Shown here piece by piece: positions 4,552 to 33,466 of a stretch of DNA of 37,655 nucleotides. Source of the stretch: Halobacteriales archaeon QS_4_66_20 (GTDB lineage Archaea > Halobacteriota > Halobacteria > Halobacteriales > Haloarculaceae); the NCBI GenBank assembly GCA_003021015.1, contig PXRK01000053.1:1-37655 (forward strand), read 5' to 3'. The position numbers and the translations under genes are program-made. Positions within the stretch are counted from its first letter, which is position 1, and each line of letters starts with the position of its first letter. The notes under the pieces were generated by a model. The model did no database searches. It saw only the letters and a program-made list of their open reading frames with translations, and was not told the DNA's origin.

Positions 4552-4565
4552 ACCACCTCGGGGTC

Positions 4566-4675
4566 ATACTGTCGGACGTAACTCTGTGTCACGTCGTGAC
4601 ACTCTCCTGGCTGTATTCGCACGGTTGAACGGCTGAACGTGACGCGTAATTTCACGAAATTACGTCCGACAGTAT
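4566..4675. mobile_element. 110-bp MITE-like element with 16-bp terminal inverted repeats
   Basis: The ends ATACTGTCGGACGTAA (4566-4581) and TTACGTCCGACAGTAT (4660-4675) are perfect inverse complements. Inside are two further palindromes: GTGTCACGTCGTGACAC (4586-4602) and CGTAATTTCACGAAATTACG (4645-4664), the second overlapping the right terminal repeat. No protein is encoded. It sits between the convergent ccdA and histidine kinase genes, so it may also act as a bidirectional terminator. No clear target-site duplication is visible. A non-autonomous transposable element is an inference from the architecture. Confidence 0.6.
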
Positions 4676-4697
4676 CAACTGGTTCGAAGCTGATCGG

Positions 4698-19331: not shown

Positions 19332-19769
19332 ATGGACCTGGAACCGTACGACCACGTCAGGCCGACAGTCGACGGGGAGTACGAGCCGGGCATCTACCGG
19401 GTGGTCGGCACGGACGGGGACAGCGTCACGCTGCTCAGGGTCGGAGACAGCGACGGACACAGAGTGTCTTCCGGCACCGTCGTTGGGGTTTCAAGCGACG
19501 AGCTCGACGCGTTCGAGCCGGCCGAGAACCCCGACGGGAACCGCCCGCTGGGCGCCAGACTCGTGTCCCTGCCAGCGACGGTGGGCTGGTCGTTCGTCGC
19601 GTTCGGCCAGCAACTCGCCGCACGACCGCTCCCGGCCGCCGCCGCGCTGGCCCTGTTCGCCGTCGGATTGGTCGGTGAGAGCACTCTCGGACTCCGGGAG
19701 CCGCTCGCGACGGTGATCGCACTCGTCGGCGCGCTCGCGCTCACCCTGCTCGGGAGCGGCCGGCTGTAG
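19332..19769 (+). CDS. Haloarchaeal membrane protein co-transcribed with fen, function unknown
   Basis: A 145-residue protein starting two bases after the fen stop, so it is probably co-expressed. Residues 1-65 are soluble and acidic (EPGIYRVVGTDGDSVTLLRV, VGVSSDELDAFEPAENPDGN), resembling a small beta domain. The rest has two or three membrane helices (LPAAAALALFAVGLVGEST, LATVIALVGALALTLLGSG). Codon use is typical of real genes here. No function can be assigned; the link to FEN1 may be only positional. Confidence 0.75.
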   Translation: MDLEPYDHVRPTVDGEYEPGIYRVVGTDGDSVTLLRVGDSDGHRVSSGTVVGVSSDELDAFEPAENPDGNRPLGARLVSLPATVGWSFVAFGQQLAARPLPAAAALALFAVGLVGESTLGLREPLATVIALVGALALTLLGSGRL

Positions 19770-19819
19770 CGCCGGCTGTGGTCACGCCCTATTCAGATTC
19801 CCCTCGTCGCCTTCCTGAA

Positions 19820-19868
19820 GCCCACGAATTGTGACTCCCCGGCGGTAACGAGTCCCAACAATCACTAT
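19820..19868 (-). repeat. Partial copy of the 111-bp hairpin element
   Basis: Read on the minus strand from 19868, the first 29 nt match the left arm of the copy at 33341 at 26 of 29 positions (ATAGTGATTGTTGGGACTCG, then TTACCGCCG). The next stretch, GGAGTCACA, matches the opposite arm of that copy. The other terminal repeat is missing, so this is a broken or rearranged copy. Confidence 0.55.
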
Positions 19869-31840: not shown

Positions 31841-32245
31841 ATGTACAGAATCGTGGCAGGAATCGACACCGACACTGATCGCGCGGAGGCGGTGGGCCGG
31901 ACGCTCGCAGAGATGCCGTTCGAGGAGGCGGAGGTCGTTCTCGTCCACGTGTTCGAGGAGAATCCGGAAGGTGCCGGCGTGGGACAGGTCGGTTCGGTTT
32001 CCCACGTAGAAAAGATCCTCACGGAGAGAGTCGACTTCGAGGTGACTCCGGTCGGAAAGAGCGGTGATCCGGCAGCTGGCCTGCTCGACGCGGCGGAGGA
32101 GTTCGACGCGAACCTACTCTGTGTGGCGGGTCGCAAGCGGACGCCGACCGGCAAGGCGATCTTCGGCAGCGTCACCCAGGACGTCATCCTCGACTCGACG
32201 TATCCCGTCGTGGTCTGTGACGACCAGTGGCCCGGCGATGAGTGA
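31841..32245 (+). CDS. Universal stress protein (UspA family)
   Basis: A 134-residue single-domain UspA protein. MYRIVAGIDTDTDRAE opens the alpha/beta fold, and AGRKRTPTGKAIFGSVTQDVIL holds the ATP-binding G-x2-G-x9-G(S/T) signature. It acts as an ATP-binding stress-response protein; the exact role is unknown. The start is supported by a TATA-like box 26 nt upstream. It is divergent from the Liv operon, a frequent pairing in haloarchaea. The stop codon TGA (32243-32245) abuts the left end of a 111-bp hairpin element. Confidence 0.93.
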   Translation: MYRIVAGIDTDTDRAEAVGRTLAEMPFEEAEVVLVHVFEENPEGAGVGQVGSVSHVEKILTERVDFEVTPVGKSGDPAAGLLDAAEEFDANLLCVAGRKRTPTGKAIFGSVTQDVILDSTYPVVVCDDQWPGDE

Positions 32246-32355
32246 TAGTGATTGTTGTGAGTCTTTACCGCTGTCGACCCATCAGACTCCGGTGTCAGCC
32301 CGTGACACTCCCGAGAATGCGATTCGACTCCGAAAATAATCACAACAATCACTAT
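32245..32355 (+). mobile_element. 111-bp hairpin element, copy A
   Basis: The ends ATAGTGATTGTTGTGA (32245-32260) and TCACAACAATCACTAT (32340-32355) are perfect 16-bp inverted repeats. An inner hairpin GTGTCAGCCCGTGACAC sits at 32292-32308, exactly at the centre, and the flanking arms are partly complementary, so the whole element can fold into one long hairpin. It encodes no protein. A second copy of the same length and orientation is at 33341. A non-autonomous transposable element or a terminator-like structure are both possible. Confidence 0.7.
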
Positions 32356-32410
32356 GAGACCCCCACCTGTGGAACCGAGCAGCGATCCAACCTGAAACTA
32401 CCCGGACCTC

Positions 32411-33313
32411 ATGACAACTGATCAGAACGACAACGACGGTGCCGATCACTTCAGCCCGGCGATCGACGCGCATACGCACCTGCTTCCGTCGTCGCTGACC
32501 GAGGCGATCCGGCGTGCACTCACCGGCGAAGCCGGATGGGAGTTCTCCCACCCAGTGACCAGATCCGGCATCGAAGGGATTCTCACCGACGCAGGGGTGA
32601 GCGCGTACGTGGCACTGCCGTACGTCCACGAAAAGGGGATGGCAGCTGACCTCAACGACTGGCTCTGCTCGCAGGCTGTAGACAGCGACCGGCTGATCCC
32701 GTTCGCGACCGTCCACCCGGAAGACGACGACGTCGCCTTGCTCGTCAGGAAGGCGTTCGAACAGGGAGCCAGGGGCCTGAAGTTCCACTGTCCCGTCCAG
32801 GAGTGCAAACCGGGCGACCCGCGCATCCAGCCGGCGCTAGACGTCGCTGTCGAGTACGACCGGCCGGTAACCTACCACGGCGGGACCGCCCCGATGTTCG
32901 AGGAGAGCCCGTACGTGGGTCACGACGTCTTCGCGGAGCTGGTAGCGTCTTACCCCGATCTGCGCGTCTGCTGTGCGCACATGGGGACCTTCGAGGTCGA
33001 GCAGTTCGTCGCCCTGGCCCGGGAGCATGCGAACGTCTACCTCGACACCACCTTCGCTATGTCGACAGAGGCCGAGGAGACGATGGGGTTCGACCCGAGT
33101 TCGATCCCGGACGCGACGTTCGTCGACCTGTCGGAATCGATCATGTACGGCTCGGACCTGCCGAACATTCCGTACCCCTACCGCGAAGAACGGGCGGAGC
33201 TACTCGCCCGTGACCTCCCCGCCGACACGTACCGGGATCTGTTCTACCGGACGGCGACCCGGTATCTCGGGTTCGATCGGGAATCGGGAGACGCCCCTCC
33301 CACCAGCCAGTAG
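32411..33313 (+). CDS. Amidohydrolase-2 family metal-dependent hydrolase/decarboxylase
   Basis: A 300-residue TIM-barrel protein. Metal ligands are visible as His21/His23 (AIDAHTHLLP), His156 (VTYHGGT), His190 (VCCAHMGTFE) and Asp249 (MYGSDLPNIPY); GLKFH (Lys124, His126) adds catalytic residues. The family includes decarboxylases such as ACMSD and gamma-resorcylate decarboxylase, and lactonases. The substrate is probably a small aromatic or cyclic acid, judged only from the neighbouring PaaK-like, MaoC-like and Liv genes. It is bracketed by two direct copies of the hairpin element. Confidence 0.88.
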   Translation: MTTDQNDNDGADHFSPAIDAHTHLLPSSLTEAIRRALTGEAGWEFSHPVTRSGIEGILTDAGVSAYVALPYVHEKGMAADLNDWLCSQAVDSDRLIPFATVHPEDDDVALLVRKAFEQGARGLKFHCPVQECKPGDPRIQPALDVAVEYDRPVTYHGGTAPMFEESPYVGHDVFAELVASYPDLRVCCAHMGTFEVEQFVALAREHANVYLDTTFAMSTEAEETMGFDPSSIPDATFVDLSESIMYGSDLPNIPYPYREERAELLARDLPADTYRDLFYRTATRYLGFDRESGDAPPTSQ

Positions 33314-33340
33314 CACGTCGGCTGTCTACGGTCGTGAGTG

Positions 33341-33451
33341 ATAGTGATTATTGCGACTCTTTACCGCCGTCGATTCGTCAGCCACCGGTTTCAGCCCATG
33401 ACATTCCCGGGACGACGATGTGACTCCGAAAACAATCGCAATAATCACTAT
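33341..33451 (+). mobile_element. 111-bp hairpin element, copy B
   Basis: The ends ATAGTGATTATTGCGA (33341-33356) and TCGCAATAATCACTAT (33436-33451) are perfect 16-bp inverted repeats. The element is the same length as copy A and co-linear with it (shared tracts include CTTTACCG, GTCAG, TGACTCCGAAAA). Where the terminal arm differs from copy A, both arms of the same copy changed together. It lies between the convergent amidohydrolase and PaaK-like genes and could terminate both. Confidence 0.7.
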
Positions 33452-33466
33452 GAGTGTGACTCACTA

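What the first reader, a model, noticed from the sequence alone, without database searches (positions are those of the whole stretch)
32245..33451. Two 111-bp hairpin elements with co-varying arms bracket the amidohydrolase gene
Copies A (32245-32355) and B (33341-33451) have equal length, the same orientation and perfect 16-bp terminal inverted repeats. The arms differ between copies (TGTTGTGA versus TATTGCGA) but each substitution is matched in the opposite arm, so pairing is kept. An inner dyad lies at the exact centre of copy A. Paired change implies that the folded form, as DNA or RNA, is maintained, or that the arms convert each other. Copy A abuts the uspA stop codon; copy B lies between convergent genes. 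This could be a MITE family, a terminator family or a structured RNA.
Basis: partly seen in the sequence, partly recalled or inferred. Interest (0 to 1): 0.7.

Follow-up and report, generated by a model that had tools for sequence, protein, structure and literature searches.

The report
Orphan haloarchaeal mini-transposons with matched arms
The two hairpins are copies of a gene-less, 109-letter piece of DNA present in well over a hundred places in this salt-loving microbe's genome and in many of its relatives; it is likely cut and pasted by an enzyme not yet found, and often sits exactly in what is predicted to be a gene's stop signal, likely without harm.

Summary
They are miniature inverted-repeat transposable elements, not a structured RNA or terminator family. 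The genome gives 266 arm matches (0 in the reversed control). Flanks carry identical 3-bp TSA duplications in 57 of 66, 32 of 39, 26 of 29 and 18 of 21 elements (sets found by arms or profile); the target consensus is GWC-TSA-GWC; empty sites exist. Lengths cluster at 107-109 and 77-80 bp. At least nine arm sequences occur; both arms change together between subfamilies, but changes private to one copy are one-sided (20 of 20), and no inner pairing is conserved. Copy A's duplication is the uspA stop codon; 25 of 67 elements sit on a predicted stop codon. The family matches in 58 of 391 genomes of the class, including Haloquadratum walsbyi C23, where repeats of this size were published in 2011 as 'small mobile repeats' said to cause no target duplication and to move enigmatically. 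No autonomous copy was found in what was searched. The enzyme is unknown.

The parts
32246..32354 (+). Copy A, 109-bp element; arms 32246-32260 and 32340-32354
   Evidence: covariance model match 8.4e-24, A is one of the model's own sequences
32243..32245 (+). Left target duplication TGA of copy A, which is the uspA stop codon
32355..32357 (+). Right target duplication TGA of copy A
33342..33450 (+). Copy B, 109-bp element of another arm subfamily (TAGTGATTATTGCGA); arms 33342-33356 and 33436-33450
   Evidence: covariance model match 3e-22, B is one of the model's own sequences
33339..33341 (+). Left target duplication TGA of copy B
33451..33453 (+). Right target duplication TGA of copy B
4567..4674 (+). 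Third intact element in the window, 108 bp, arms TACTGTCGGACGTAA, unrelated core, TCA duplication at 4564-4566 and 4675-4677
   Evidence: model match E 0.0019, not a model sequence
19767..19867 (-). Decayed copy: one end intact (arm 19853-19867), the other end lost
   Evidence: E 4.1e-6
31841..32245 (+). uspA-like gene (Usp, PF00582) whose stop codon is the insertion site of copy A
32411..33313 (+). Amidohydrolase gene (PF04909) between the two copies; no sign that it moves with them
   Evidence: the gene is present without A or B at the G017 orthologue

Best explanation
Copies A and B are non-autonomous DNA transposons (MITEs) from a family of elements of mostly 107-109 or 77-80 bp, likely moved in trans by an unidentified DDE-type transposase that would make a 3-base staggered cut at the palindromic target GWC-TSA-GWC. 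Shown: dispersed copies, 3-bp direct duplications, empty sites, nesting, two length classes, arms matched within a subfamily and changed in both arms between subfamilies, one-sided decay afterwards, frequent placement on predicted TGA stop codons. Inferred: the enzyme reads both 15-bp arms plus the conserved unequal subterminal blocks, so an arm change persists through amplification only when both ends carry it; arm pairing then reflects two matching ends rather than a maintained hairpin. Inferred: insertion into a stop codon is tolerated because the duplication restores the stop.
For: 266 arm matches in the genome, 0 control. Identical TSA flanks: 57 of 66 (the arm pattern included two flank letters per side, of a kind that favours unlike middle bases), 32 of 39 profile hits, 26 of 29 in H. 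walsbyi, 18 of 21 in six further genomes (counted by eye, 2 spurious rows dropped). Clean empty site: element L364:9541 in G017 against own L016, missing exactly 108 bp plus one TCA, flanks 98/99%; further ones. Copy A is absent from G017, which has a copy inside its uspA instead. Lengths 80 (10), 108 (18), 109 (34), others 6 among 68 own elements, shuffled 0. Arms 96.0% paired, covariation score 0.199 against 0.087 shuffled. 20 of 20 private changes one-sided. 25 of 67 on predicted stop codons against 17.7% weighted expectation, p 1e-4; 23 of 63 if only TSA duplications are counted, p 3e-4.
Against: No transposase with these ends was found. 30 frames from 18 of 40 arm-bounded intervals of 0.2-3.5 kb show no transposase domain. 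In H. salina two arm groups were listed genome-wide without an arm pair around a transposase (for judged from coordinates). In G037 and G352 the arms tested occur only in short elements plus chance-level single hits. About 346 of 441 kb of H. salina plasmids gave none. The 30 fetched of 86 DDE_Tnp_1 matches have other ends and DDE_Tnp_1_2 is absent from 6 of 6 genomes. A DDE enzyme is therefore inferred from the duplication alone. 9 of 66 elements lack identical flanks. The strict length is unexplained. In one search the number of further pair types does not exceed the shuffles (12 against 12.0).
Confidence: 0.87

Rival explanations
1. A structured RNA or transcription terminator whose hairpin is maintained by selection in place.
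For: Single-strand folding is far better than shuffles for A, B and the third element (z -4.2 to -6.2). Arms covary between subfamilies. Convergent gene pairs are somewhat over-represented: 19 seen, 12.0 expected, chi-square p 0.07 over the three classes, 56 of 67 elements.
Against: Private arm changes are not compensated (20 of 20 one-sided). No inner pairs are conserved. Subterminal blocks are conserved in sequence and unequal on the two sides. Dispersed insertions with target duplications and empty sites. No Rfam match to the elements at gathering scores.
Confidence: 0.05
2. Arms stay matched because one arm is copied onto the other (quasi-palindrome correction), not because an enzyme reads both ends.
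For: Paired arm changes exist, and arms can be replaced while the core stays related (arm types a and c: core 68%, arms 7 of 15; shuffled cores mean 53%, maximum 62%).
Against: In-place correction should give paired private changes; 0 of 20 seen, 0 of 5 between orthologues (one informative locus). All nine partnered elements in G352 keep the same unmatched arm position.
Confidence: 0.06
3. A single-strand (IS200/IS605-like) or site-specific recombinase mechanism with a 3-base joint moves the element, so TSA is a recombination site rather than a staggered-cut duplication.
For: No DDE partner found; Haloquadratum repeats of this size are reported to sit in palindromes of IS605-type elements and PATEs (PMC3119063, sections 25 and 31).
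Against: The middle base, G or C, is the same on both sides in 57 of 66, as a staggered cut predicts. The target consensus is symmetrical. IS605-type elements are described as causing no duplication and having no terminal inverted repeats (PMC3119063 Table 4, passage).
Confidence: 0.1

Closest known systems
Small (short) mobile repeats SMR-A and SMR-B of Haloquadratum walsbyi (HqIRS42, 43, 55; HqIRS40, 41), PMC3119063
   Same: About 110 bp (SMR-A) or, for HqIRS41, 80 bp; prominent inverted terminal repeats; SMR-A families without sequence similarity to one another; many copies; repeats said to be unlike any transposon of the genome; mobilisation unknown. Members of 107-108 bp are present in H. 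walsbyi C23 itself: found by blastn of copy A (end match E 2.8e-5), by the arm pattern and read; identity of G141.
   Different: The paper says no target duplications; here 26 of 29 arm pairs in that same genome have identical TSA flanks. The paper stresses insertion into IS605-type and PATE palindromes; here predicted stop codons are frequent.
IS5-related (IS1031 group) and PIF/Harbinger elements with 3-bp TNA duplications (recalled, from no call)
   Same: 3-bp T-N-A duplication, short inverted repeats, MITE derivatives.
   Different: DDE_Tnp_1_2 absent in 6 of 6 genomes; the DDE_Tnp_1 elements examined have unrelated ends and, where a duplication was seen, mostly 6-9 bp.
Bacterial small MITEs such as RUP and Correia elements (recalled, from no call)
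   Same: About 100-bp, intergenic, high-copy non-autonomous elements.
   Different: Those have TA-type duplications and a known or presumed parent IS (recalled); here TSA, and no parent was found.
REP/RAYT systems (recalled; PMC2817692 seen in a search listing only)
   Same: Abundant intergenic palindromes without a self-coded enzyme.
   Different: REPs are shorter and cause no target duplication (recalled); here a 3-bp duplication and lengths of about 109 or 80 bp.

Membership tests
MITE | Short, non-coding, terminal inverted repeats | tested here: met
   109 bp; 15-bp arms; too short for a transposase
MITE | Target-site duplication | tested here: met
   TSA in 57 of 66, 32 of 39, 26 of 29, 18 of 21
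MITE | Mobility (presence/absence at orthologous sites) | tested here: met
   Clean empty site L364/L016; others
MITE | Ends shared with an autonomous element | tested here: inconclusive
   None found, but searches were partial and a partner outside these genomes is not excluded
SMR-A (H. walsbyi) | About 110 bp with prominent inverted repeats, multi-copy | tested here: met
SMR-A (H. walsbyi) | No target duplication | tested here: not met
   TSA duplication here and in the H. walsbyi genome itself; so not filed as SMR-A as published, though read as the same kind
SMR-A (H. walsbyi) | Repeats unrelated to the transposons of the genome | tested here: inconclusive
   No match found in parts of H. 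salina, and by arm search in G037 and G352; for H. walsbyi only as stated in PMC3119063
SMR-A (H. walsbyi) | Preference for IS605-type/PATE palindromes | not tested
   Flanks of 67 own elements are not palindromic beyond the consensus; IS605 context not examined
IS5/IS1031-derived MITE | TNA 3-bp duplication (recalled) | tested here: met
IS5/IS1031-derived MITE | Cognate transposase with the same ends | tested here: not met
   (30 of 86 loci)
Structured RNA family | Compensated changes in fixed copies; conserved inner structure | tested here: not met

The most novel reading that the evidence does not exclude
An orphan transposition system of haloarchaea: one family of trans-acting enzymes that carries none of its own ends mobilises ruler-length elements (108 plus or minus 1 bp, or about 80 bp), whose arms turn over in both ends at once as enzyme specificity changes. 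It would be a DDE-type counterpart of REP/RAYT in which element length itself is selected.
Probability: 0.3. Interest if true: 0.75.

Novelty: new member of a known kind. Interest (0 to 1): 0.5.

Why it matters
These repeats were described in one species in 2011 with the remark that they cause no target duplication and move by an enigmatic mechanism (PMC3119063). Here related repeats match in 58 of 391 genomes of the class, with a 3-bp duplication and a defined target. That makes the open question testable: which enzyme makes a 3-base staggered cut at CTSAG. The stop-codon placement suggests how an element can multiply in a gene-dense genome with little harm, and the length classes are an unexplained rule. 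For annotation: such hairpins beside genes should not be called terminators or regulatory RNAs without evidence.

Tried and rejected
Rejected: structured RNA or terminator, in-place arm correction (see rivals). Rejected: composite transposon carrying the amidohydrolase. The gene is present without A or B at the G017 orthologue. Of 40 arm-bounded intervals of 0.2-3.5 kb, frames of 19 were listed and 30 frames from 18 were scanned against Pfam: transporters, kinase, aminotransferase and other host genes or no match, no transposase.

Led nowhere: viral contigs (0 hits). Five of those 24 loci have a loose second arm 315-1261 bp away with unlike flanks, most contigs are low in GC, and I read them as chance. 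Plasmid collection: for copy A one near-full match on an H. salina plasmid (74% identity) and two end-only matches, none for the third element. PL47 of H. walsbyi: no inverted-repeat pair at that setting. PF01609 and PF13586 as partner. The literature listings shown held no named Halovenus element and no 3-bp haloarchaeal MITE that I recognised; of PMC10969869 only passages were seen.

False lead, withdrawn: an element that seemed flipped between L129 and L182 came from my script reversing a 108/109-bp pair; one search shows the same orientation.

Full report
Observation. Copies A and B are real. The flanks show that the element is TAGTG...CACTA, 109 bp with 15-bp arms, inside a direct TGA repeat; the stated 111 bp includes one base of each repeat. 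A and B differ at arm positions 9 and 13, both changes matched in the opposite arm.

Copy number. The 120-bp query gave 223 candidates in the own genome, of which the tool scored 40; 108 matches are listed, many of them single arms of the same elements. Besides A itself, 26 of the listed copies are 89-99% identical over 91-119 query bases, which I read as a recent burst. The arm-plus-subterminal pattern with up to 3 mismatches gave 137 + 129 matches, 0 reversed; an element gives one or two, so well over 100 elements. In 41 own stretches (809,397 bases: 40 from contigs chosen because they had listed hits, plus the window) a general scan for T-N-A direct repeats around 15-bp inverted arms, 60-140 bp long, found 68 elements: 80 bp (10), 108 bp (18), 109 bp (34), six of other lengths (101-122 bp); 0 in shuffled sequence. 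One of the 68, a 116-bp register shift of another, was dropped for later counts (67).

Target duplication. That scan required the duplication, so the counts that matter come from searches on arms or profile. 57 of 66 elements have the same TGA or TCA on both sides, with consensus GWC-TSA-GWC. These 66 are those of 76-129 bp among 69 found in own and relatives' loci, whose pattern reached two letters into each flank (G-A as read from each end); that favours T and A but unlike, not like, middle bases. Others: 32 of 39 profile hits in own stretches (the profile was seeded from 30 elements); 26 of 29 in H. walsbyi stretches (two of the three exceptions are a 141-bp chance pair and a 122-bp overlapping call); 18 of 21 in six further genomes (counted by eye; two spurious rows dropped; one fetched region gave none). 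The central base is the same, not complementary, on both sides, so it is a direct duplication and not part of the arms.

Empty sites. An element in G017 (108 bp, TCA) has an own-genome counterpart without it, flanks 98 and 99% identical, missing exactly the element plus one TCA. Own L168:1403 against L193 is empty with 88/83% flanks, and nested elements have empty counterparts in other copies. Own L162:17582 against L226 has a further 12-base difference beside the site: 'empty', 'other'. Copy A is absent from G017 (76% flanks) and B's spacer there is shorter too; G017 has a copy inside its uspA frame instead. Full tallies (directions overlap): G000 to G006 3 filled, 4 other; G000 to G017 3 filled, 1 empty, 2 other; G006 to G000 3 filled, 2 other; G017 to G000 4 filled, 1 empty, 2 other; G006 to G017 3 filled (one with a poor element match), 1 weakly aligned empty.

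Arms. Of 182 elements in stretches and loci of G000, G006 and G017, 177 of the usual lengths were grouped into nine arm types, 1 unassigned; 5 of other lengths were left out. Cores of types a, c, g, h, i are related (62-81% in pairs); the others (42-59%) are at the shuffled level. Types a and c share 68% of the core (shuffled, better of two orientations: mean 53%, maximum 62%) but only 7 of 15 arm letters. On 45 aligned copies from several genomes the 15 arm pairs are 96.0% paired, 5 have double changes (shuffled mean 2.8, reached in 10 of 500), covariation score 0.199 against 0.087 shuffled and at most 0.091 when slid; the number of pair types does not exceed the shuffles. Related sequences inflate such scores. 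Beyond the arms RNAalifold finds no pair; instead TCTTTACCGCCG on one side and GAAAATAA on the other are largely conserved in sequence.

Are the arms maintained as a hairpin? Against the nearest of four subfamily consensus arms, 38 own copies show 20 changed arm cells, all one-sided (1 of 39 skipped as too different). Copy B's arms count as a subfamily of their own, justified by 7 elements of that type. Orthologous comparisons: 11 locus pairs tried, 8 comparisons at 5 loci obtained; all 5 one-sided counts come from one locus and represent two independent events; 0 paired. Some multiplied subfamilies are imperfect: nine elements in G352 keep a T/C difference between arms, and H. walsbyi copies differ at arm positions 12 and 14. 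So double changes belong to founders of amplified subfamilies, and fixed copies decay without visible compensation.

Gene context. A codon-usage gene caller written for this purpose places 4 of 67 elements inside a predicted gene (each within 50 bp of its edge), 7 at stretch edges, and 25 of 67 with the duplication exactly on a predicted stop codon, two of these with TAA. Among non-coding plus stop-codon TSA sites 12.2% are stop codons, or 17.7% weighted by the target matrix, which was itself built from these elements; binomial p 1e-7 and 1e-4; for TSA duplications alone 23 of 63, p 6e-7 and 3e-4. Gene-pair orientation differs only weakly from expectation, p 0.07. Copy A is such a case. Reading: insertion into TGA duplicates the stop and spares the protein.

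Distribution. A covariance model of arms plus core matched 58 of 391 genomes of the window's class, 26 of 86 genera (strict filters, 9 candidates scored per genome, so copy counts are floors). Four of the 58 (G000, G048, G068, G141) had given sequences to the model. Listed matches are mostly 107-109 or 80 bp, with a few of 103-106, 118 and 124. An exact-pattern scan of genome contigs found 83 stretches; the 80 listed all have haloarchaeal titles.

Enzyme. In H. salina (4 contigs) two arm groups were listed genome-wide. The surroundings of the arms that lack a short partner were fetched and scanned; the arms were judged from coordinates. No arm pair encloses a transposase. In G037 (2 contigs) the arm TACGGACAGTTGTAA occurs in five 108-bp elements plus four 2-mismatch single hits; four of the five tie in model score. 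In G352 the arms occur in nine 80-bp elements plus two weak hits, with 12 control hits at that setting. So near-identical dispersed copies exist where no autonomous relative with the same arms was found. DDE_Tnp_1 loci (30 of 86 matches fetched, inverted ends sought within 1.3 kb) and DDE_Tnp_1_2 gave no candidate. About 346 of 441 kb of H. salina plasmids gave only a few T-N-A-flanked intervals with unlike ends. The DDE reading rests on the short symmetrical duplication.

Comparison with the known. PMC3119063 (passages; sections 25 and 31) describes SMR-A, about 110 bp, and SMR-B, one of 80 bp, with inverted repeats, no target duplication and enigmatic mobilisation. Size, repeats, multiplicity and presence in the very strain fit; the absence of a duplication does not. 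I read the window elements as the same kind and the published no-duplication feature as incomplete, but do not file them as SMR-A as defined. That the H. walsbyi copies read here are the numbered HqIRS families is inferred from size, number and strain.

Uncertain. The enzyme; why length is fixed; whether any copy has been put to use by the host. Gene calls are home-made, G000 is an 89%-complete draft, and elements at contig ends are under-counted.

Noticed in passing
window 4567-4674: A third intact element of the same kind with other arms and an unrelated core, TCA duplication, between predicted genes.
   Followed up: yes
window 19767-19867 (- strand): A truncated copy: one end intact, the rest lost.
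   Followed up: partly
L122:2663-2881, L126:2356-2862, L165:928-1197: Elements interrupted by other mobile DNA: L122 by a second element with different arms, L126 and L165 by an insert with ends like GTTCAGATAAG, perhaps an unrelated MITE.
   Followed up: partly
L091:965-1073 (G017 uspA): A copy inside the coding region of the uspA orthologue, one of few cases that interrupt a gene.
   Followed up: partly
G352, 80-bp elements: All nine elements share one unmatched arm position (T on one side, C on the other), so a mismatch did not prevent amplification.
   Followed up: partly
L013, L022, L023: Copies at or near contig ends of the own draft genome; the repeats may break the assembly.
   Followed up: no
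Two length classes, about 107-109 and 77-80 bp, with little between, shared by families whose cores are unrelated. No explanation found.
   Followed up: partly
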